A program made the position numbers and the translations under genes. Shown here piece by piece: positions 5,239 through 15,388 of a stretch of 64,000 nt of DNA (positions are counted from its first letter, which is position 1; each line of letters opens with the position of its first letter). The stretch is from NCBI RefSeq assembly GCF_014201145.1, contig NZ_JACHDP010000001.1, positions 5,828,001-5,892,000 of the forward strand, in the 5' to 3' direction. The notes under the pieces were generated by a model. That model did no database searches, was not told the DNA's origin, and worked only from the letters and a program-made list of their open reading frames with translations. This DNA comes from Micromonospora parathelypteridis. GTDB lineage: Bacteria; Actinomycetota; Actinomycetes; Mycobacteriales; Micromonosporaceae.

Positions 5239-6468
5239 ATGAAACATGCCCTGCGCCGCCTACGAACGGGGGCGGTCGCGCTCGCTGCCTGCACACTTGG
5301 GCTGAGCCTACTGTCGGTACCCGCCGCCGAGGCGTACTCGGTTGCCCCTCTCGCGCCACAATCCGAGCGGGCACCGGAATCGAACCAGTTTTCGGCTGAG
5401 GGTGTGACCACGATCGGTGAACTCCGCACCGTCGACAGCTCCCTGTCCTACGCCCCCAACGGCGGGACGCAGATCATTCAGCACCCCGGTGCCACCTACG
5501 TCAAGGTGCACTTCAGCTCACTGCGGCTGGCCCAAGGCGACTACGTCACCGTGTCGAGCCGCGACGGCAAGGAGAGCTACCGGTACGACCGCCACCTGAA
5601 CCGGGCGACCGGTTCGGACTACACCACCGACGGGCAGCCGGGTTTCTGGGCGATGTCGGTCGAGGGCGACACCGCGGTGGTGACACTGCACAGCAGCCGC
5701 CCCTCACGTGGCAGCGCCGCCACCATTGACCGGTTCTGGCGCGGATACGACCGCACGGAGATCGCCGCGCACAACTTCTCCACCCAGTCCGTGTGCAGCA
5801 CCGACGCCCGCCGGGACGTGGTCTGCTACCAGAACAGCCACCCCACCGAGTACGCCCGCGGCAGGGCGGTAGCGCGGCTGCTGATCAGCGGCGGTGGACT
5901 GTGCACCACCTGGCGGGTCGGCAACACCAACCGGATGCTGACGAACAAGCACTGCTTCTCGACGCAGTCCGCAGTGAGCGGCAGCGAGATGCAGTTCAAC
6001 TACCAGTGCGCCACCTGCGGCGGCGCGAATCCCGGCGCCGGCACCAAGGTCAGCGGTGCCACCCTCTACAGGGTGAGCAGCGGCGGCTCCAACCAGCTGG
6101 ACTACACCCTGTTCTCGGTCAACAACTTCGCCACCATCCAGGGATTCGGCACGCTGTACCTGGCAACTACCGCCACCAGCAACGGCACCCGGATCTACGT
6201 CCCCGGGCACGGCGACGGCAGCGCGAAGCGGCTGTCGATCTACGAGGACACCCAGAACGGCGCGACCTGCGCCGTCCGGAACGCGAACTACAACACCTGG
6301 AACATCAGTTACAGCTGTGACACCTCCGGTGGCAACTCGGGTTCACCCGTGCTGAACGCCAGCCACCGTGTGATCGCCCTGCACCACCTCGGCGGTTGTC
6401 CGTCGAACCAGGGCGCGAAGGCGCACCTGATCTACAACGAGATCGCCAGCCTGATCGACAACGGCTGA
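5239..6468 (+). CDS. Secreted trypsin-like serine protease
   Basis: I place the start at the ATG at 5239, after a good ribosome site (GAAGGAG) and directly before a classical signal peptide (MKHALRRLRTGAVALAACTL, then an alanine-rich cleavage site near residue 32). This gives 409 residues. The S1 fold is shown by the His motif MLTNKHCFS and the Ser motif CDTSGGNSGSPVL; an Asp in the LDYTLFSV segment is a plausible third triad member. Six or more cysteines suggest disulfides after export. The gene is divergent from the MocR regulator and ends at a shared hairpin with the next, convergent, gene. Confidence 0.92.
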   Translation: MKHALRRLRTGAVALAACTLGLSLLSVPAAEAYSVAPLAPQSERAPESNQFSAEGVTTIGELRTVDSSLSYAPNGGTQIIQHPGATYVKVHFSSLRLAQGDYVTVSSRDGKESYRYDRHLNRATGSDYTTDGQPGFWAMSVEGDTAVVTLHSSRPSRGSAATIDRFWRGYDRTEIAAHNFSTQSVCSTDARRDVVCYQNSHPTEYARGRAVARLLISGGGLCTTWRVGNTNRMLTNKHCFSTQSAVSGSEMQFNYQCATCGGANPGAGTKVSGATLYRVSSGGSNQLDYTLFSVNNFATIQGFGTLYLATTATSNGTRIYVPGHGDGSAKRLSIYEDTQNGATCAVRNANYNTWNISYSCDTSGGNSGSPVLNASHRVIALHHLGGCPSNQGAKAHLIYNEIASLIDNG

Positions 6469-6519: not shown

Positions 6520-9500
6520 TCACCGCTCGACCTCACCACCAGACACCGTGTACGCGTAGGGCACCGCGGCCACCTCCGTGGCGAACCCGGTACGGGCGTC
6601 GAGGGTGGTCACCGTCAACGAACCGGTGACCGGTTCTCCCACCGGTTCGTCCGCGCTGAAGATCACGATGACCCGGCCGCTCTGCCCCGGCGCCAGCGTC
6701 AGCGGCGTGGATGGGTCGGTCGACCCTTCGACCACCCGCCGCCAGTAACTGCCGGTGGACGAGGTGACCCGCCGGTCGAAGAGTCGAGTCAGGGCAGTCG
6801 CCGCGCAGTCCACTCGGGCCGAGGGCTGGGGAGCACCGCCGAACGGGCCGGCCCGGTTGGCGTTGCAGATCCAGGTCGTGGCCGACACCTCCGCCGACGA
6901 GACGACCACCTCCGAGCGCCGGCCGGCGGTCCCGGCCAGGTCCGGGTCACCGACGTAGTAGCCGTTCTCGCCATACGGTTGCGTGTCCAGCACGTGCGGC
7001 ACCGTCGAATCCGCCGACATCCGCAGCCGGGTCGTGCCGGACGGGACCGCGAAGCGAGGGTAGACATCGACGGCGGACACCGGTGTCTGATACGTGGCCG
7101 ACGCCACCGGCCGCAGTGGCACCTCGCCCATGGCGTCCAGCCGGGCGTCCACGAGGTACGACGCCGGTGCCGTACCGGTGTTGGTGATGGTGAGGGTGGC
7201 CTCAGCGGGACGACCCGCCGGCAGCACGGCGCCCGCCGGCACTCCGGTCGCCACCACCGACGCCGGGGCGAACCCCACCCGGCCGTGGAACGGCTGGCTG
7301 GTCCGGACAGTGGCGGTCGGCGCGGTGAGCACCAGCACCACGGTCCATCGACCTGGCTGCGGGGCACGCCGGACCAGGTCCAGCCGGGGCGGCGCCGTGG
7401 TCCCCGCGGAGCGCGAGCTGCTGGCCGCGAGCGGCATCCCGGCCGGGTCGACGAGGAAGCCCCACACCTCCAGCCCCGGGTCGTCGCCGGCGTGCACCGA
7501 CACGGCCAGCGCCGGTTTCCCAGCCGGTACGTCGAACTGGAAGCTGCGCCGCTGCCCGAGCAGCGCCCACCCGGCGAGGGCGCCGTTGCCGCCGGAGAAG
7601 GTGCCGCCGAAGCTGCCGCCGGTGGGACCGGTCGGGACCAGCGCCCGCAGTCCTAACGGAAGCGCCGCGTAACCCGTCGTGCCGGCGACGACGGTCACGG
7701 CGGCCGACGAGTCACCAGCCGTGGTCGGCAGGCGGACCGGCAGCCAGGCGGTCCGCGTACCGCCGGGCGGCACGACGACCGAGGGGCCGCTTCGCGCGGT
7801 CAGCCGCAGCGCGGTGACGTCGTACCGCACCGCATCCACCGGCGGTGACCCGTCGTCGCGGGTCCAGATCGCCACGGTCCAGCGGCCCGGCTGCGGCCGG
7901 GCCACCGTCACCCGCCCGTACCCCCCGTTGCCCAGCGGCAGTGAGTAACCGGCGAGCCGGCCGGCGGGATCGAAGACGCTCACCGCGACCGGCGTGGCAT
8001 GTGACCGGGGGTCCCAGGCCACCGCGGCCTGGAGCTGGTCGGTCCCGCCCGGAACGGTGACCGGCACCCGGCGGGCGTTCGCCGGTACGCCGTCGGAGTC
8101 GGCGAAGGCCGTCCCCGCCCCCGGCGTCACCTGACCGGCGGCGAGGCTGCGGGCCGGCGCGGCGGACCGCAGGCCGACGGTGACGCGACGGGCGCGCCCG
8201 CCCGGATTGGTGAGGTGCACCGCGACCGGCGTGACCTGCCCCGCCGCGCCGGTGACGCTCGCCGTCGAGGTGGCGACAAGCAGCCCCGCCAGGTCCCCCG
8301 AGGCCGGCCGACCAGCGGATCCGGCAGCGGCGTCGGCGGGCCGGGCGGCGGAGTCCGGGTGGTCGGTCAGGGCGGCGGCCAGCCGCACCGCCGCGAGGGT
8401 GTCCACCCGCCCGGCCCCCTGCTGGTCTGCCGGCTGCCGCAGGTCGGTCGCGGAGCTCATGAGGATGCGTTTGACCTGCTCGGGGGTCGGTGTGCCGCCG
8501 GTGTGCCGGCGTACCGTCTGGATCACCAACGCCGCCGCCCCGGCCACGAACGGCGCTGCGGCGCTGGTGCCGCCGAACAGGAAGAACGGGCTGGGGCTGC
8601 CGCCGTCGAAGAAGGAGATACAGCTCTGGTAGCGCGCGGTGTCGGTCGAGCAGGCAGCCCACGAGGTGTCGCCGGGTGCCACGAGGTCGACGGTGCGAGG
8701 TTCCGCCTGCGCGGTGCCGCCGGAGCTCAACGCGGACACCGAGTCGGACCGGTGGCCGCCGTCGCCGAGCGGCGAACCGCCGTACCCGAGTTGGCCGTAC
8801 GCGCGCAGTTGGGTGCTCGCGCCGACGGCGATGACGTCCGGGTCGCTGGCCGGCGAACCCAGGGTGCCGTCCGGCCCGGCGTCCCCGGTGGCCACCACCA
8901 CTGTCACCCCCGCGGCGACGGCCGCGTCGTTGGCCAGCCGCAGCGCGTTCGCGGCCGTGTCCGGGTAGCCGTAACCCACCAACGACTCGTTCAGCACGTC
9001 GACGCGTTCATGGAGCACCGCCCACTCGATGCCCTGCAGGACAACCGACGTGGGTGCCGCGACGTTGCTGAACACCTTGGCGACGTGCACGGTGGCGGCC
9101 GGTGCGACGCCGAGGATCCGCATCAGGCACGGTCCGTCGGAGCGGTGCGCCGGATGCGCGTACCGCCCGGCGTCGTAGACGCCGACGCCCTGGGCCGCCA
9201 CCACGCTCGCGTCGCCGAAGGATTCCAGGATGTACGAGGGGGCGTCCAGGCCGTCGCCGGTGAAGTCGGCGTAGCCAGCCACGACCGACCGCCCGTCGCG
9301 GACGAACTCCGCCGCCGCCGGGTCGATCGCCCCGCCGAGCACGCCGACCCGCACCCCTGAGCCGTCGGCCAGGTCGTGGGCGCCGGGCCCCTGGGCGGAT
9401 CCGACGGTACGCGTCAACGCCAGCCCTTCCGGTTCGGTCAGCGGTGGCTCACCCGGCCCGGCGCAGCTGCGGGCACCCATCGCGGTCCCGCCGGCCGGTG

Positions 9501-9891
9501 GCGCGGGCCGGCTCGGCGCGACCGGTTGGCGCAGTCGCAGTGGACTGTCGGGCAGTACGGCTCGCACCCCGGGACGGGTCTCCAGCTCCGCGACGGCCCG
9601 CTCCGGCAGGGTCGTGGCGATGGCGTTCACCAGGCGGAAGGGCGTCACCCGGGTGGCGCCGACGCGGCGCAGGTCGGTGAGCATCGGCTGCTGGTCGGCG
9701 GTGATCCGGGCGGCCCGGTCGGCGAGCAGCCGCGCGGGAGCGGTGTCGTGCTGATCGGCGAGGACGACGATGACGGCCCGGACCGGCCCGGCGTCGACCG
9801 CCGCCGGTGCGGCCATGGCGGCGACCGGTCCGGTGGCCAGGGCCGGCGTCAGTAGGGCGGCCAGCAGTCGGTGCGGCGCGGTCAGGTGCAC
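6520..9891 (-). CDS. Large secreted subtilase-fold (S8) protein, RiPP operon member; triad looks degenerate
   Basis: The preferred start is the GTG at 9891, preceded by GGAAGTGAGG about nine bases away, and directly before a signal peptide; this gives 1123 residues. An in-frame GTG at 9906 is an alternative. Residues about 35-120 resemble an I9 pro-domain. The S8 core spans about 175-500, with the serine motif GGTSAAAPFVAG near residue 443. By eye, the Asp motif reads VGVLGGAID where VxDTG is expected, and the His block reads FGDASVVAA where HGTHVA is expected. The oxyanion region is ATGDAG with Asp instead of Asn. Several beta-rich, Fn3-like segments make up the last 600 residues. It lies 50 bp downstream of the M50 gene, as the last gene of the operon, and could process or bind the peptide outside the cell. 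Confidence 0.85.
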   Translation of the reverse strand: MHLTAPHRLLAALLTPALATGPVAAMAAPAAVDAGPVRAVIVVLADQHDTAPARLLADRAARITADQQPMLTDLRRVGATRVTPFRLVNAIATTLPERAVAELETRPGVRAVLPDSPLRLRQPVAPSRPAPPAGGTAMGARSCAGPGEPPLTEPEGLALTRTVGSAQGPGAHDLADGSGVRVGVLGGAIDPAAAEFVRDGRSVVAGYADFTGDGLDAPSYILESFGDASVVAAQGVGVYDAGRYAHPAHRSDGPCLMRILGVAPAATVHVAKVFSNVAAPTSVVLQGIEWAVLHERVDVLNESLVGYGYPDTAANALRLANDAAVAAGVTVVVATGDAGPDGTLGSPASDPDVIAVGASTQLRAYGQLGYGGSPLGDGGHRSDSVSALSSGGTAQAEPRTVDLVAPGDTSWAACSTDTARYQSCISFFDGGSPSPFFLFGGTSAAAPFVAGAAALVIQTVRRHTGGTPTPEQVKRILMSSATDLRQPADQQGAGRVDTLAAVRLAAALTDHPDSAARPADAAAGSAGRPASGDLAGLLVATSTASVTGAAGQVTPVAVHLTNPGGRARRVTVGLRSAAPARSLAAGQVTPGAGTAFADSDGVPANARRVPVTVPGGTDQLQAAVAWDPRSHATPVAVSVFDPAGRLAGYSLPLGNGGYGRVTVARPQPGRWTVAIWTRDDGSPPVDAVRYDVTALRLTARSGPSVVVPPGGTRTAWLPVRLPTTAGDSSAAVTVVAGTTGYAALPLGLRALVPTGPTGGSFGGTFSGGNGALAGWALLGQRRSFQFDVPAGKPALAVSVHAGDDPGLEVWGFLVDPAGMPLAASSSRSAGTTAPPRLDLVRRAPQPGRWTVVLVLTAPTATVRTSQPFHGRVGFAPASVVATGVPAGAVLPAGRPAEATLTITNTGTAPASYLVDARLDAMGEVPLRPVASATYQTPVSAVDVYPRFAVPSGTTRLRMSADSTVPHVLDTQPYGENGYYVGDPDLAGTAGRRSEVVVSSAEVSATTWICNANRAGPFGGAPQPSARVDCAATALTRLFDRRVTSSTGSYWRRVVEGSTDPSTPLTLAPGQSGRVIVIFSADEPVGEPVTGSLTVTTLDARTGFATEVAAVPYAYTVSGGEVER

Positions 9892-9941
9892 GGTAGGTGT
9901 CCTCACTTCCGGGTGGCGGTGCGCTGCGGTGGACGAGCCGA

Positions 9942-11168
9942 TCAGGCGGCGGTACGACGTTCGGTGACGAGGACCCAGCCGAAGGTGGCGAGTTGCAGGG
10001 CGACGAGCGCGAGGAAGCCGACGCCGTTCCAGAAGGCGAGCCCGTCGACCGGCGCGACGAGTCCGTCGATGGCCAGCCGGACCATCGTGACCATGGCGGG
10101 CGCCGTGAGGGCCAGCAGCGCCGCGGTCACGGCGAGCGAGCCCAGCAGGTAGAACGGCGCGTACCAGCGGATGATCCGTACTTCCCGGGCCGGCACACCG
10201 CCGAGGTCGTGCCCGGGGTCGCGGCCGACCAGTCGACGCACCTGGTTGGCCAGCCATCGCCGGGTGTCACCCATCAGGTCGCCCAGCCGCAGCCAGTTGC
10301 CCAGGACGTAGTAGATGTCGGTGCGCATGAACACCAGAAACTGGTAGACCACCGACAGCGTGAGCGTGTAAACGACGCCGCGGACCAGTCGCTCGTGCAC
10401 ACCGGCGAGTTGCAGCACCAGGCAGGCCGACATGAGCAACAGGTCCCAGGTCAGCCCAGCCAGGTACGGGGCGTAACGGCGGCGACGGGGCACGGACCGG
10501 ACGGCTGACATCTCCGTCTGCGCCACCAGGAACCACAGCCTTCGGCTGATGGAGAGCCGTCCGGTGACGCCCAACGCCCGCACGGTGGCCGCGTGCGCCA
10601 ACTCGTGCAGCAGCACCAGCATCCAGGCCACCATCGCGACGACCAGGGCGTTGGCCAGCACCCCGTCCAGCAGGAACGCGTCGGCCGGGGTGGGCCGCAG
10701 CGAGGGAACGAGCGCCAGCAGTAACGGTACGGTCAGCCAGCTGCCGACGTAGAGCAGCCGCATCGGCGGCGCGAGCAGCCAGGAGACCCGGTGCGGCGGC
10801 AGGTTCGCCAGCAGCGCCACTCCCCGACGGGACACCTCGCTGCCGGCGGCCGGCGGGGTGCCGGCCCCGGTCGTCGTCGTGCCCGCGTCGCCCGTCGCGG
10901 CGTCCACCCGCAGGAATCCGCAGGACGCGATGCCGTCGAGGAAGTCGGCGAGGTCCGGCTCGGTGCCGTAGCGGTCGGCGAACCGCCGGCGGACCTCGCC
11001 GAGCGGCAGTCCCTCGCCGAGCCACCGGACGAGGTCGACGCCCTCGGCCGGCAGCTCGACGAAGTCGCCGGTCTCGACCCGGCCGACCTCGCACACACCG
11101 TCCTCGCTCTCGCCGATGTGCAGCGGATACAGCCGGACGACGGTGGTGTCGGCGAGCGTGCTGGTCAC
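9942..11168 (-). CDS. PqqD-like domain fused to M50-type membrane metallopeptidase
   Basis: 408 residues from a GTG that overlaps the stop of the upstream E1-like gene (GTGA), implying translational coupling. Residues 1-90 look like a PqqD/RiPP-recognition-type winged helix. From about 128 on there are six or so membrane segments with the zinc motif HELAH at 188-192 (LVLLHELAHAATVRALG) and a second conserved-looking Asp in GLTWDLLL, as in the M50 peptide-maturation peptidases. The family cleaves or helps export modified peptides at the membrane. With the adjacent precursor-like gene and adenylating enzyme, I infer leader removal or export of the product. Confidence 0.88.
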   Translation of the reverse strand: MTSTLADTTVVRLYPLHIGESEDGVCEVGRVETGDFVELPAEGVDLVRWLGEGLPLGEVRRRFADRYGTEPDLADFLDGIASCGFLRVDAATGDAGTTTTGAGTPPAAGSEVSRRGVALLANLPPHRVSWLLAPPMRLLYVGSWLTVPLLLALVPSLRPTPADAFLLDGVLANALVVAMVAWMLVLLHELAHAATVRALGVTGRLSISRRLWFLVAQTEMSAVRSVPRRRRYAPYLAGLTWDLLLMSACLVLQLAGVHERLVRGVVYTLTLSVVYQFLVFMRTDIYYVLGNWLRLGDLMGDTRRWLANQVRRLVGRDPGHDLGGVPAREVRIIRWYAPFYLLGSLAVTAALLALTAPAMVTMVRLAIDGLVAPVDGLAFWNGVGFLALVALQLATFGWVLVTERRTAA

Positions 11169-12325
11169 GTCGCGGACCCGGACGCGACAGTGGCCCGCAG
11201 GTCGCCGGGGCGGGGGACCCGGCCGTCCGGGCCGCAGGCGGCGCAGTCGTCGAGCAGCGTGCCCTCGGCGAACTGCGTTTCCATCCGGTGCACGTCGACG
11301 ACGAGTTTCCGGCCGACGATGACCGGCTCCGCCATGCCGGTGAGGTGCTTGACGGCCTCCAGGGCGGCCAGGTTGCCGATCATCCCGGCCATCGGCGCGT
11401 TGCACGGGTTGATGGTCCGGTCGCCGATCACCCCGACGACATACTCGGCCATCGGCGCGTACTCCGGGTGGTTGGCCGCGGCGTCCTGCTCGACACACTG
11501 GAAGCAGGCGGTCTGGTAGGGAACGTGCAGGAAGAGGCTGACCGTGAGCCCGTCGTTGGAGCCGCGCATCCACGCCGTGCCCTCCCGCAGGGCCGCCTCG
11601 TTCAGCCACTGGTAGAGCGTGAGTCGGGGCCGGTCGGCGGCGCAGATCACCAGGTCCCGGCCGGTCATGCAGGCGCGGGCGGCCGCCACCCCGTCGACCC
11701 GCGCGTTGCGCGCGCTGATCCGCACGTGCGGGTTTATCTCGGTCAGCCGGCGGACGGCAGCGGTCACCTTGGGCTGCCCGACGTCGGCGTCGGTGTAGAG
11801 CACCTGGCGGTTCAGGTTCATCAGTTCCACGTCGTCGTCGTCGACGAGCAGGATGTCGCCGACTCCGATGGCGGCCAGGCTCATCGCGACGTACGACCCG
11901 AGGCCGCCGATCCCGAGCACCGTGACCCGGGCGTCGCGCAGCCGCAGCTGGAAGTCGGCCGCGGTCAGCGGGGGCTTGTGGAAGTAGGAGAAGAACTCCA
12001 GGTTGCGCCGGTACCGCTCGCGTTCCACCTCCGGCAGCCGGGCCGGCGGGGGTACGGCGGCGTCCTCCACGAAGCCCATGTCGATCAGCGCGTCGACGGA
12101 GTCGTCGACGTCGGCGGCGGTGATCCCCGGATCGTGCTTTGCCATCGCGTCCGCCAGCTCGGGCCGGGTCCGGGTTCCGTCCAGCAGGCTCAACAGGTGC
12201 CAGGTGTTGCCGTGCTCGTCGTCGACCATCTCCGAGGCGATGCCGTAGTCGCCGCCGCCGATGCGGATGCGGCCGTCGCCCAGCGGGATGGGTGGAAACA
12301 CACTCTTGATTCGGGGTCGCCTCAT
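11165..12325 (-). CDS. E1/ThiF-like adenylating enzyme with N-terminal PqqD-like domain (RiPP maturation)
   Basis: The start chosen is the ATG at 12325, nine bases after AAGGAG, giving 386 residues. Residues 1-85 look like a peptide-binding PqqD-type domain (WHLLSLLDGTRTRPEL). The E1 fold follows, with nucleotide loop LGIGGLGSYVA, then VDDDDVELMNLNRQVLY and a catalytic-type Lys in GQPKV. Two CxxC pairs (TACFQC and DDCAAC) should bind zinc, as in MccB and other ThiF relatives. Such enzymes adenylate a carboxyl group, often of a peptide. There is no YcaO partner nearby, so azoline formation of the usual kind is not indicated; terminal activation as in microcin C-type systems is a better comparison. 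Confidence 0.92.
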   Translation of the reverse strand: MRRPRIKSVFPPIPLGDGRIRIGGGDYGIASEMVDDEHGNTWHLLSLLDGTRTRPELADAMAKHDPGITAADVDDSVDALIDMGFVEDAAVPPPARLPEVERERYRRNLEFFSYFHKPPLTAADFQLRLRDARVTVLGIGGLGSYVAMSLAAIGVGDILLVDDDDVELMNLNRQVLYTDADVGQPKVTAAVRRLTEINPHVRISARNARVDGVAAARACMTGRDLVICAADRPRLTLYQWLNEAALREGTAWMRGSNDGLTVSLFLHVPYQTACFQCVEQDAAANHPEYAPMAEYVVGVIGDRTINPCNAPMAGMIGNLAALEAVKHLTGMAEPVIVGRKLVVDVHRMETQFAEGTLLDDCAACGPDGRVPRPGDLRATVASGSAT

Positions 12326-12430
12326 CCGTACTCGCTCCTTCGGGTCCTGGTGGGGTCGCCCGGCGCCCCCAGTCGTCGTGGCGGTCCTGGCCACCGCCCA
12401 CCAGAGCGGGCGGTGACCAGGACAGTCGGG

Positions 12431-12508
12431 TCAGCAGTCCGTGCAGGGGCTGCAAGCGCAGATGACAGTGGTCTCGATCTTCTCGAGCCGACGGATCTGG
12501 ATCTTCAT
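12431..12508 (-). CDS. Putative RiPP precursor peptide, 25 residues, Cys-rich C-terminus
   Basis: ATG at 12508 is preceded by a very strong ribosome site (GGGAGGTG, five bases away), and the frame ends at TGA 12431. The product has 25 residues: a charged leader-like start (MKIQIRRLEKIE) and a C-terminal stretch CACSPCTDC with four cysteines at positions 17, 19, 22 and 25. It is the first gene of the operon, 105 bp ahead of the E1-like gene, in the usual position of a precursor. The very short leader and the C-terminal Cys are unusual. A short structural peptide cannot be fully excluded, but context strongly favours a RiPP precursor. Confidence 0.85.
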   Translation of the reverse strand: MKIQIRRLEKIETTVICACSPCTDC

Positions 12509-12622
12509 GGCGACACCTCCCTCCCGGGTTCCACGGCTGGCCCGACCGCGACCGGCGGAGGCCGCCGGTGCCCGGACCAGCACCTCGGTGAAGTGTGTGG
12601 CGGGCCGCCGGGGCGTGGGTGA

Positions 12623-12642
12623 ATCCCGGACGATCCCGGACG
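12623..12642. promoter_or_regulatory. Perfect 10-bp tandem repeat in divergent promoter region
   Basis: Two head-to-tail copies of ATCCCGGACG lie between the precursor gene and the divergent NB-ARC/TPR regulator. Direct repeats with a period of one DNA turn are typical operators of SARP-like regulators. A role as binding site is inference. Confidence 0.4.
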
Positions 12643-12760
12643 GCCACCACCGGCGCCCCCGTGTCCACTCGGCGGATCAAGGACAGATCCGGTGACGCTG
12701 CCGGACAGCAGGGGTCTAGTAGGAGCACAAGTCCGACATCAGGACCGTCCAGGAGCCGCC

Positions 12761-15388
12761 GTGACCGAGTCGCTGTCGATCAGAAGCGGTGTGGCGCCGC
12801 CGGATCCCGGACCGGCCGACTCGCTGGACGAGGTGGCCCAACGACTACGGATGTTGAAGGTCTGGGCCGGTGACCCGTCCTACGACACGATCAAGAATCG
12901 GATCAATGCGGCAGGGAAGGCCACGGGCCGGCCCGGTGGTGTGATGGCGAGGAGGACGACGGTCGCCGACTGCTTCAAGGGCGGCCGGAGGCGGCTCAAC
13001 ACCGATCTGGTGATCGCCGTTGTCGAAGCGCTGCATCCAGACGTCGGGTACGTGGCGCAGTGGCGGCAGGCGCTTCGCGTCGTCGGCGGGGAGGCCCGGG
13101 CGGCAGCGCAGGTGCGGGTCCAGGACAACCTGCCGCAGGACCTGGCCGGCTTCGTCGGTCGTACCGCCCCGCTGAACCGGCTCCGACGGGAGTTACGCAA
13201 AGGCGACCTGGATGGCGGCCCGGTCGTGCTGGCGATCCAGGGCATGGCGGGCGTCGGCAAGACCCAACTCGCCATCCACGCCGCGCATGCCGCGCACCGG
13301 CGGAAACCGTTCGACCGGATCCTCTTCGTCAACCTGCGCGGATTCCACCCGGACCCCGGTCAACCGCCGGCCGACCCGGCCTCGGTCCTGGAGGGCTTCC
13401 TGCGCCTGCTCGGCGTCGCCGGCCAGCAGATCCCGTACGACCTGCCCGCCCGGGTTGCCGCCTACCGCCGCCTCCTGGTCGGCACCCGTACTCTCGTGGT
13501 GCTGGACAACGCCAGCGACGCCGAACAGGCCCGCCCGCTGCTGCCCGACACTGCGGGCTGCCCGGTGCTGATCACCAGCCGACGCGACCTCAGCGAACTG
13601 CCGCACGCCACACGGCTCACCGTGGACCTGTTCACTCCGGATGAGTCGGCCGCGCTGCTCGCCGGGGGAGGGTCGCCTCTCCCCGGCGGCGCCGACCCGA
13701 ACGCGGTGGCCCGGATCGCGCAGCGGTGCGGCCACCTTCCCCTTGCGCTCGGGCTGGTCAACGCGCACCTCAGAAGCACCTCAGGCTGGACGTTGACCGA
13801 TCACGCCGACCGGCTCGACGAGCGTCACCACCAGCGTCGCCTCGACGTCAGCGTGGAGCTTGCCTTCGACCTCTCCTACCGGGAGCTACCCACCGACCGG
13901 CGACGGCTGCTGCGTTTCGTGGCGGCACATCCCGGCGATGATTTCGACGCCCAGGCCATCGCTGCCCTCAACGGCATCTGCCCGTCCGACGCGGAGGTCC
14001 ATCTGCACCACCTCCACCGGGACCACCTGCTGCAACAGGCCGCCCCCGGCCGGTACGCCCTGCACGACCTCATTCGCGCGTACGCCGTCAGCCGGTGCGG
14101 CGACGAAGACCCACCACCCGAACGGCGGGCCGCCCTGACCCGTCTGTTCGACTACTACGTGGCCACCGCCGCCGCCGCAATGGACGTCCTGTACCCGGCC
14201 GGGTCGCACCGCAACGAGGCATCATCCGGTGGCGGACCGGTCGCGGTTCTGCTCGACTCGGACACCGCCCGCGACTGGCTGGATACTGAACGCCCGGCTC
14301 TGGTCGCCGTCGCCGCCTACACCGCCGCCCACGGCTGGCCCTCTCACACCACCCGCCTGTCGACCAGCCTGTTCCAGTACCTGCACGGTGGGTATCCCAC
14401 TGATGCCCTCGCCATCCACGAGCACGCGCGTATCGCCGCTCGCCGCGCCGGTGATTCAGCCGGGCAGGCTCACGCCTCGACCAGTCTCGGCGCCACCTAC
14501 GCACAGCTCGGCCGATACGGGCCGGCCACCGAGCACCTTCAGCAGGGCCGGACCCTGTTTCGACGAGTCGGCGACCAGGTCGGCGAAGCCCGCGCACTGG
14601 TCAACCTCGGCGTCATCGAGTCGCAGCTCGGCCGCAACCGGTCCGCCGCCACCAGCTACGGCCTGGCCCTGGCCCTGTTCCGGCAGGCCGGCCACCAGGC
14701 CGGGGAGGCACACGCGCTGAACAACCTCGGTGAGGTCGAGGCGCAACTGGGCCAGTACGGGCTGGCCGCCGAGCACGTGAAACGATCCCTGATCCTGTTC
14801 CAGCGAATCGGCGGCCGGACCGGCGAAGCCTGGACGCTGAACACACTCGGCGACATCGAGATACGGCTGGGGCGGCACCGGGCCGCCGGGATCCATCTGG
14901 AGCGGGCCCTGGCCATGTACCGCCAACTCGGCAATCACACCGGTGCGGCCTGGACGCTGAACAGCCTCGGCACGCTGCACACCAGCCTCGGCCAGATCAG
15001 CTGCCATCACCAGCAGTCGCTGGACATCTTTCGCGAGACCGGCGAACGGTACGGGGAAGCCAGCGCACTCAACGGAATCGCCGAGGCGGCTCGCGTCACG
15101 GGCAACGTCGCCGACGCCCTTGCCCACCACAACGCGGCACACACGATCGTCGTCGAGATCGGCGCGTATCACGAGCACGCCCGTACCCACGCCGGCCTCG
15201 GTCACACCCACCGCGCTCTCGGAGCCCCCACCTCCGCCCGCGATCACTTCCAACGGGCGCTCACCCTCTACACCGACCTCGACATGCCCGAGGCCGAAGA
15301 TATTCGCGCCCACCTCACCGCCCTCGACAGCAACGGCGTCGGGTACGCGACGGTACAGCTCCTGACGTGCACCCTGAGCTGCAGTTGA
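12761..15388 (+). CDS. NB-ARC/TPR regulator with HTH-like front, divergent from RiPP operon
   Basis: 875 residues from a GTG at 12761 with AGGAG five bases upstream. Residues about 20-110 resemble the helix-turn-helix-like front end of actinomycete STAND regulators (VADCFKGGRRRLNTDLVIA). A P-loop GMAGVGKTQLA is at 161-171, followed by LVVLDNASD and the GLPLAL-like CGHLPLALGL of the NB-ARC module. TPR repeats fill about 530-860, with recurring LxNLGxxxxxLG units. There is no BTAD domain. Such proteins couple ATP binding to transcription control. Its position, 252 bp from the peptide gene and divergent, suggests it regulates that operon. Confidence 0.88.
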   Translation: MTESLSIRSGVAPPDPGPADSLDEVAQRLRMLKVWAGDPSYDTIKNRINAAGKATGRPGGVMARRTTVADCFKGGRRRLNTDLVIAVVEALHPDVGYVAQWRQALRVVGGEARAAAQVRVQDNLPQDLAGFVGRTAPLNRLRRELRKGDLDGGPVVLAIQGMAGVGKTQLAIHAAHAAHRRKPFDRILFVNLRGFHPDPGQPPADPASVLEGFLRLLGVAGQQIPYDLPARVAAYRRLLVGTRTLVVLDNASDAEQARPLLPDTAGCPVLITSRRDLSELPHATRLTVDLFTPDESAALLAGGGSPLPGGADPNAVARIAQRCGHLPLALGLVNAHLRSTSGWTLTDHADRLDERHHQRRLDVSVELAFDLSYRELPTDRRRLLRFVAAHPGDDFDAQAIAALNGICPSDAEVHLHHLHRDHLLQQAAPGRYALHDLIRAYAVSRCGDEDPPPERRAALTRLFDYYVATAAAAMDVLYPAGSHRNEASSGGGPVAVLLDSDTARDWLDTERPALVAVAAYTAAHGWPSHTTRLSTSLFQYLHGGYPTDALAIHEHARIAARRAGDSAGQAHASTSLGATYAQLGRYGPATEHLQQGRTLFRRVGDQVGEARALVNLGVIESQLGRNRSAATSYGLALALFRQAGHQAGEAHALNNLGEVEAQLGQYGLAAEHVKRSLILFQRIGGRTGEAWTLNTLGDIEIRLGRHRAAGIHLERALAMYRQLGNHTGAAWTLNSLGTLHTSLGQISCHHQQSLDIFRETGERYGEASALNGIAEAARVTGNVADALAHHNAAHTIVVEIGAYHEHARTHAGLGHTHRALGAPTSARDHFQRALTLYTDLDMPEAEDIRAHLTALDSNGVGYATVQLLTCTLSCS

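What the first reader, a model, noticed from the sequence alone, without database searches (positions are those of the whole stretch)
12431..12508. Short Cys-rich peptide gene in precursor position of a RiPP-like operon
A 25-codon gene with a very strong ribosome site encodes a peptide ending CACSPCTDC. It is directly upstream of an E1-like enzyme and an M50 peptidase on the same strand. A leader of only about 16 residues and a cysteine as the last residue are unusual. I know of no described class with this exact precursor and enzyme set.
Basis: partly seen in the sequence, partly recalled or inferred. Interest (0 to 1): 0.92.

Follow-up and report, generated by a model that had tools for sequence, protein, structure and literature searches.

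The report
Cysteine-tailed precursor for a ThiF–M50 RiPP
A 25-residue bacterial peptide gene belongs to a broad, apparently undescribed group of tiny modified-peptide operons whose ubiquitin-E1-like enzyme probably activates the peptide's C-terminal cysteine so that it can be cyclised or conjugated, before a membrane peptidase releases it.

Summary
Window 12431-12508 (-) encodes MKIQIRRLEKIETTVICACSPCTDC after a strong ribosome site, 105 nt upstream of an E1/ThiF-like gene that overlaps an M50-like peptidase gene by GTGA. Three Micromonospora copies differ only at synonymous third positions, while flanking DNA is 59-87% identical.

It belongs to a family. Of 80 E1 loci kept, 50 carry a short ORF with the leader motif IxIRxL[ED]xIETT, mostly in Actinomycetota, some in cyanobacteria. 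A profile trained without the window's clade finds the window peptide at E 2.9e-10. The E1 model matches MccB and PaaA, the RiPP adenylyltransferases, over nearly its full length.

The window's clade stands out. Its precursors end C-x-x-[CH]-x-D-C, and among 81 locus sequences only its six E1s carry a cysteine at position 308.

Best explanation: a ThiF-like-adenylyltransferase RiPP whose Cys25 carboxylate is adenylated and captured, most likely as a macrothiolactone on an internal cysteine; the M50 peptidase then releases it. The chemistry is inferred.

The papers and family libraries searched do not describe this precursor and enzyme set. Novelty: new variant of a known kind.

The parts
12431..12508 (-). 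Precursor peptide gene, 25 aa: leader MKIQIRRLEKIETT, putative core VICACSPCTDC
   Evidence: translation; synonymous-only changes in 3 genomes; profile hit E 2.9e-10
12509..12525 (-). Ribosome-binding region (GGGAGGGAGGTGTCGCC before ATG)
   Evidence: sequence; GAGGGAGGTGTCGCC conserved in three genomes
12384..12423 (-). Strong RNA hairpin between precursor and E1 gene; possible attenuator or mRNA stabiliser that keeps the precursor in excess (inference)
   Evidence: 18-bp stem, z of the intergenic stretch -3.3; strong hairpins in 5 of 6 clade loci with different stem sequences; none in L022. No terminator-like site with T-run and no Rfam match
11165..12325 (-). ThiF/E1-like adenylyltransferase, 386 aa, with N-terminal RRE-like winged-helix domain (about residues 1-95) and Cys308
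   Evidence: PF00899 E 1.1e-49; model pLDDT 93.9; best PDB matches MccB and PaaA; R173, Q174, K186 in 81 of 81 and D231 in 78 of 81 sequences
11402..11404 (-). Codon of Cys308 (INPCNAP), among the locus sequences found only in the clade with C-x-x-[CH]-x-D-C precursors
   Evidence: 6 of 81 E1 sequences; invariant in 31 of 31 proteins of A2; also in two more distant proteins, P0105 and P0107, whose precursors are unknown
9942..11168 (-). M50-like membrane metallopeptidase with PqqD-like N-terminus, 408 aa, GTGA overlap with the E1 gene
   Evidence: HExxH and [RK]TDxY in 41 of 41 aligned sequences; homologues match PF02163 (5 of 6) and PqqD (3 of 6) below cut-off; sources call some relatives 'putative peptide zinc metalloprotease' or 'PqqD family'
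6520..9891 (-). S8 subtilase gene next in line; possible last processing protease, not part of the conserved core
   Evidence: PF00082 E 1.1e-29; relatives beside the module only in L018, L019 and L022 among 80 loci

Best explanation
The ORF is the precursor of a RiPP made by a ThiF-like (E1-type) adenylyltransferase. Steps: (1) the E1's N-terminal RRE binds the IQIRRLEKIETT leader; (2) the E1 adenylates the C-terminal carboxylate of Cys25; (3) the acyl-AMP, perhaps through a Cys308 thioester, is captured by an internal thiol, most likely Cys19 (-6) or Cys22 (-3), giving a C-terminal macrothiolactone; (4) the membrane M50 peptidase cuts near the ETT site and releases or exports the short core, and in some strains the S8 subtilase trims further. 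That it is a precursor for this enzyme is shown by comparison (my probability 0.93). C-terminal activation is inferred from the enzyme family (0.7). The thiolactone is the favoured guess (0.4). The function of the product is unknown; a signal or antagonist is my guess.
For: A conserved leader motif sits near the E1 in 50 of 80 loci, and the held-out test found the window clade, 10 of 10 copies at E 1.8e-9 or better. The E1 model matches MccB (TM by target 0.86) and PaaA (0.84) over RRE plus catalytic domain; those are RiPP enzymes. ATP-site residues are kept. All four distinct peptides of the clade (ends CSPCTDC, CGSCSDC, CCGCTDC, CPIHGDC) have Cys at 0 and -6 and Asp at -1; three of four have Cys at -3. 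Among 81 locus sequences Cys308 is found only in that clade. Published E1-type RiPP enzymes adenylate a carboxylate, in most cases the C-terminal one: MccB, GrcB, EnfB, IndF (PMC12250964, sections and passages; PMC12150305, parts 1-2 of 3). M50 peptidases release other RiPPs: TglG, TmoG, EpeP (PMC10885120, passages).
Against: No biochemical data. Cys308 and the terminal Cys co-occur in one clade, so this is one event, not repeated covariation; two distant E1s (P0105, P0107) also have a Cys there, with unknown precursors, and two precursors ending in Cys (L024; L084 at E 1.8) go with E1s that lack it. Cys308 is offset from ThiF Cys184 by about five residues in the pairwise alignment and sits opposite a Thr in MccB. 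PaaA modifies side-chain Glu, not the C-terminus. Sources disagree on which carboxylate GrcB uses. 14 of 50 precursor-bearing loci lack a recognisable M50. The E1 and M50 N-terminal profiles do not match convincingly (hhalign probability 1.5). No exporter among the five gene products scanned.
Confidence: 0.6

Rival explanations
1. The E1 activates the Cys25 carboxylate, but an outside nucleophile captures it: sulfide (thiocarboxylate, as in ThiS), an amine (as EnfB can do) or another small molecule, with Cys308 as a true E1-like thioester carrier.
For: Cys308 lies in the segment that in ThiF holds the catalytic Cys, though out of register, and among 81 locus sequences is limited to this clade. 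EnfB amidates with available amines (PMC12250964 section 17).
Against: No sulfurtransferase, carrier protein or conjugating enzyme among the five gene products scanned. Internal cysteines are conserved in the clade, which suggests they are used.
Confidence: 0.18
2. The core is a metal-binding peptide: C-x-x-[CH]-x-D-C gives thiol and imidazole ligands, and the enzymes only cap or release it.
For: A Cys/His swap at -3 among the four distinct cores, typical of metal ligands.
Against: Only one His case; no metal transporter among the five gene products scanned; 30 of 50 family cores with the full motif have fewer than two Cys or His.
Confidence: 0.12
3. A microcin-C-like nucleotide peptide: the E1 attaches a nucleotide to the C-terminus.
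For: MccB is the closest solved structure. 18 of 69 distinct precursor tails in the family end in Asn, as MccA does.
Against: The window peptide ends in Cys, not Asn; MccB acts on a C-terminal Asn (PMC12250964 section 7, passages).
Confidence: 0.07
4. Not a RiPP: a regulatory leader peptide or spurious ORF in front of the E1, with the E1 serving sulfur transfer or phage defence.
For: A hairpin follows the ORF; PADLOC E1-E2 models match the E1's catalytic domain.
Against: The leader is conserved between Actinomycetota and cyanobacteria; precursors lie upstream of the E1, between E1 and M50, or after the M50, and in up to four copies. The fold match to RiPP E1s covers the RRE too.
Confidence: 0.03

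Closest known systems
GRC-type RiPPs (GrcA/GrcB, Streptococcus)
   Same: RRE-E1 enzyme; Cys-containing C-terminal region; ATP-driven thiolactone there, proposed here
   Different: GRC has radical SAM enzymes, a separate RRE and a Glu-Cys link (PMC12250964 section 14); here an M50, no radical SAM among the five gene products scanned, a C-terminal Cys, and leader not compared
Microcin C7 (MccA/MccB)
   Same: Best structural match, nearly full length; very short precursor
   Different: Substrate ends in Cys, not Asn; M50 partner; about 21% identity
Pantocin A (PaaP/PaaA)
   Same: RRE-E1 fold, among the best structural matches with MccB; 30-residue precursor
   Different: PaaA acts on internal Glu residues; oxygenase partner; leader motif there FXXLXXRI, here IxIRxL[ED]xIETT
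Enterofaecin (EnfA/EnfB) and Ind (IndA/IndF)
   Same: Short precursor, RRE-E1, C-terminal cyclisation; EnfA leader uses (V/I)RKA, many leaders here (V/I)RKLE; the released IndA core EDTTNWYFI also carries TT
   Different: Trp/Ile cores; IndP is an M16 protease, not M50 (PMC12150305, parts 1-2 of 3)
Epipeptide and pearlin M50 peptidases (EpeP, TglG, TmoG)
   Same: Membrane M50 peptidase that releases a RiPP product (passages)
   Different: Their modifying enzymes are of other kinds (recalled); no sequence comparison with them was made here

Membership tests
ThiF-like adenylyltransferase (TLAT) RiPPs | RRE-ThiF fusion enzyme with kept ATP site | tested here: met
   MccB/PaaA fold over RRE and catalytic domain, pLDDT 93.9; NRQ, K186, D231 kept in the window protein
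ThiF-like adenylyltransferase (TLAT) RiPPs | Adjacent small precursor with conserved leader and variable core | tested here: met
   50 of 80 loci; motif and cores
ThiF-like adenylyltransferase (TLAT) RiPPs | ATP-dependent modification of the precursor | not testable with these tools
   needs enzyme assay
GRC-type thiolactone RiPPs | Radical SAM partners (GrcC, GrcD) | tested here: not met
   no radical SAM among the five gene products scanned: E1, M50, S8, NB-ARC/TPR, trypsin-like; genes further out were not scanned
GRC-type thiolactone RiPPs | Cys near the C-terminus able to form a thiolactone | tested here: met
   Cys at -6 in 4 of 4 distinct clade peptides, at -3 in 3 of 4
Microcin C RiPPs | C-terminal Asn in the precursor | tested here: not met
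   ends in Cys
Azol(in)e RiPPs with ocin-ThiF partner | YcaO cyclodehydratase; ThiF as docking protein | tested here: not met
   no YcaO among the five gene products scanned; TIGR03603 hit 32 bits against a 187.65 cut-off
E1/E2 (ubiquitin-like) anti-phage systems | Partner E2, JAB or ubiquitin-like protein | tested here: not met
   PADLOC E1-E2 models hit only the E1's catalytic domain; no PADLOC hit for the M50 or S8, only TPR models for 12761-15388
Peptidase family M50 | HExxH plus Asp motif in a membrane protein | tested here: met
   both motifs in 41 of 41 aligned; PF02163 below cut-off in 5 of 6 homologues, no hit for the window protein; membrane topology not tested

The most novel reading that the evidence does not exclude
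The clade evolved a ubiquitin-E1-like two-step enzyme for a 25-residue ribosomal peptide: adenylation of the C-terminal Cys, transfer to enzyme Cys308, then release as a macrothiolactone or thioester-derived conjugate. It would sit inside a much larger, undescribed RiPP family, united by the IxIRxL[ED]xIETT leader and an E1 that mostly travels with an M50, whose clades each evolved their own C-terminal chemistry.
Probability: 0.3. Interest if true: 0.8.

Novelty: new variant of a known kind. Interest (0 to 1): 0.62.

Why it matters
Few E1-type RiPP enzymes are characterised, and they make different bonds (phosphoramidate, thiolactone, imide, indolylamide, bicyclic core). This family offers many natural precursor-enzyme pairs with one leader rule, a two- or three-gene operon and cores of 6-16 residues after the motif (median 9, 50 distinct cores), so it should be easy to reconstitute in vitro. 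The Cys308 clade allows a direct test of whether a bacterial RiPP E1 uses an enzyme thioester, as ThiF and ubiquitin E1s do.

Tried and rejected
Pfam and NCBIfam gave no family for the window peptide, NCBIfam none for ten relatives, and no equivalog above cut-off for the E1. Rfam found nothing in 9000-14000. Genome searches by the peptide alone gave weak hits; 8 of the 16 non-self loci (L003, L006, L007, L009, L012, L014, L015, L017) proved to be relatives. Plasmids: one record with a distant E1 at E <= 1e-40. Viral contigs: no exact match to a degenerate 50-base pattern of the peptide gene. Searches for more E1s of the Cys308 clade in 392 genomes of a genus that I took to be Streptomyces from genome sizes, 15 of another genus and 341 of a family gave one, apparently the same as L020; the tool warns that such empty answers prove little. 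The M50 model was folded from a single sequence by oversight and is unusable (pLDDT 46.6), so no fold search was made with it. RRE homology between E1 and M50 was not supported. A single-linkage count that gave the M50 in 47 of 50 loci was dropped for the profile count (36 of 50): that cluster holds a read-through ORF that overlaps the E1 gene out of frame, and in the 11 extra loci no ORF had both HExxH and the TD motif. The M50 profile was itself built from these loci. Caveat: the 52 training precursors were picked by a pattern I chose; only the held-out clade is an independent test, and it too had been seen when the pattern was written.

Full report
What is there. Window 12431-12508 on the minus strand encodes MKIQIRRLEKIETTVICACSPCTDC, after a strong ribosome site. 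105 nt downstream starts a 386-residue E1/ThiF-like protein (11165-12325). Its stop overlaps, as GTGA, the GTG start of a 408-residue M50-like protein (9942-11168). A subtilase gene follows (6520-9891). A divergent NB-ARC/TPR gene (12761-15388, +), most like the RiPP-associated HaaT model but far below its cut-off, lies upstream. The genome is one contig of 7.0 Mb; the nearest named loci are Micromonospora endolithica and Micromonospora sp. RP3T (95% and 94% E1 identity), so the host is taken to be a Micromonospora.

Is the peptide real? Comparing the window with L018 and L019, the ORF shows only synonymous third-position differences (2, 3 and 1 codons in the three pairs), at 96-99% identity, while DNA upstream is 59-77% and downstream 77-87% identical. 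A 50-residue reading with a GTG start is also open in the window, but the ATG and its ribosome site are what the three genomes conserve. Between peptide and E1 lies an 18-bp hairpin (12384-12423); 5 of 6 clade loci fold strongly there (z -3.3 to -4.7) with differing stem sequences, and L022 does not. No T-run terminator was found. A role in keeping the precursor in excess is inference.

The family. A scan of one genome per species with an alignment of 31 E1 proteins found 337 related stretches and kept the best 80 as loci. Short ORFs near the E1 share IxIRxL[ED][KR][IL]ETT. A profile from 52 of them, leaving out the window clade, was run on 13,382 small ORFs and found all 10 held-out copies at E 1.8e-9 or better. 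Its 92 hits with E < 0.6 lie in 80 loci (window included) and all within 2.5 kb of an E1 gene; the first hit more than 3 kb away comes at E 5.9. Of the 80 loci, 50 carry such a hit; L034, L040, L076, L083 and L084 have look-alikes outside that set. Hosts with a hit include Micromonospora, Microbispora, Nonomuraea, Glycomyces, Nostoc and Calothrix; a Ktedonobacteria genome (L084, E 1.8) and a Paenibacillus (L076, by eye) are less sure. Precursors lie before the E1, between E1 and M50, or after the M50, in one to four copies. The M50 profile matches in 36 of the 50 loci and in 4 of the other 30; the 14 exceptions are Nonomuraea, Thermoactinospora, Planotetraspora, Herbidospora and Actinacidiphila. 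In 30 of 30 loci kept from the window's family an M50 relative lies within the 1.5-kb flank. Apart from the E1 and the M50, every other shared gene cluster, out-of-frame ORFs aside, is limited to at most 16 of 81 sequences. In the window's family (Micromonosporaceae by inference) 43 of 354 genomes have an E1 at E <= 1e-60, and 4 of these belong to the window clade; class-wide it is 13 of 394, the window's included.

The enzymes. The E1 model is confident (pLDDT 93.9, pTM 0.90). Foldseek's best 25 PDB matches are MccB and PaaA chains, over 356-377 alignment columns covering the winged-helix N-terminus and the catalytic domain; ThiF and MoeB match the catalytic part. R173, Q174 and K186 are kept in 81 of 81 sequences, D231 in 78 and the four zinc cysteines in 78 or 79. 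The M50 keeps HExxH and [RK]TDxY in 41 of 41 aligned sequences. Pfam M50 hits are below cut-off in five of six homologues, PqqD hits below cut-off in three of six, and neither appears for the window protein. Sources name some relatives 'putative peptide zinc metalloprotease' or 'PqqD family'.

The Cys clade. Position 308 is Cys in the window, L018, L019, L020, L021 and L022, and in none of 74 other locus sequences with a residue there. It is invariant in 31 of 31 proteins of A2. In the wider A1 it is Cys in 34 of 40: the clade plus P0105 and P0107, which are only about 43-44% identical and whose precursors I could not see. The clade's precursors all end in Asp-Cys. The distinct ends are CSPCTDC, CGSCSDC, CCGCTDC and CPIHGDC: Cys at 0 and -6 and Asp at -1 in all four, Cys or His at -3. 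Outside the clade two precursors end in Cys, the cyanobacterial L024 and the weak hit L084, and their E1s lack Cys308, so a terminal Cys does not require it. In the pairwise alignment Cys308 is near, but not in register with, ThiF Cys184 (that Cys184 is catalytic is stated in PMC12710340, passage). The co-occurrence is a single evolutionary event, hence suggestive only.

Mechanism. Published E1-type RiPP enzymes make an acyl-AMP, in most cases on the C-terminal carboxylate, and differ in the nucleophile: MccB, GrcB, EnfB and IndF; PaaA acts on Glu (PMC12250964, sections 8, 14, 17, 20, section 9 part 1, and passages; PMC12150305, parts 1-2 of 3). The review words the GrcB link in two incompatible ways (internal Glu to terminal Cys, and activation of the C-terminal carboxylate), while two other papers say C-terminal Glu-Cys thiolactone. 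With four cysteines, a C-terminal Cys and an added Cys in the enzyme, capture by an internal thiol is the simplest guess. The M50 then plausibly releases the core near ETT; in the Ind system the released core begins EDTT. M50 enzymes act in pearlin and epipeptide maturation (PMC10885120, passages). Every step of chemistry here is inference.

Prior art. Paper searches pairing ThiF, MccB or E1-like with RiPP and with M50, Micromonospora, Microbispora, Glycomyces, actinobacteria or cyanobacteria listed no paper that I could identify as describing this set (listings, with the papers named here opened in part). RRE-Finder (PMC7470986, passages) and the structure-based RRE paper (PMC12710340, passages) do not hold the term M50 in their main text. 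The IndF paper reports 27,400 RRE-ThiF candidates and other promising clusters in a supplement I could not read, so this family may appear there. The enterofaecin paper (ACS Omega 2024) is not held. Hence new variant of a known kind, not a new kind.

Changes on checking. I added the two distant Cys308 proteins, the L084 counter-example, the read-through-ORF explanation of the rejected M50 count, and recounts. They do not change my odds.

Noticed in passing
L041:917-979, L060:7925-7987, L063:7877-7987, L069:7912-7983, L078:7916-7990: A second, different family of tiny ORFs (IEF near the start, e.g. MIEFLEPKLDLVLCDPDQNN) sits just upstream of E1 relatives in Amycolatopsis, Kutzneria, Saccharothrix and kin; the M50 profile finds nothing there. 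Probably another E1-type RiPP precursor family.
   Followed up: no
L102-L106, L108-L113, L115 (upstream of the E1): A second clade in the window's family has a strongly conserved core [DE]PGCRN[DE][VL]C[GS] and an M50, but no Cys308 in the E1.
   Followed up: partly
L057:2944-3431, L062:7790-9443, L066:7568-7916: Loci with three or four precursors of the same leader type, suggesting several products from one enzyme.
   Followed up: partly
L035, L037, L068, L071, L072, L089 and Microbispora loci such as L047, L053, L054: Precursors ending NSxGN (C-terminal Asn, as in MccA), in E1 clades without Cys308; candidates for microcin-C-like chemistry in Streptosporangiales.
   Followed up: no
window 12761-15388: NB-ARC/TPR protein with a partial match to the HaaT model of cyclophane RiPP clusters (399 bits against 1125 cut-off); close relatives divergent beside the operon in L018 and L019.
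   Followed up: partly
window 5242-6468: Trypsin-like protease gene convergent with the subtilase gene; no relative in the 80 loci.
   Followed up: no
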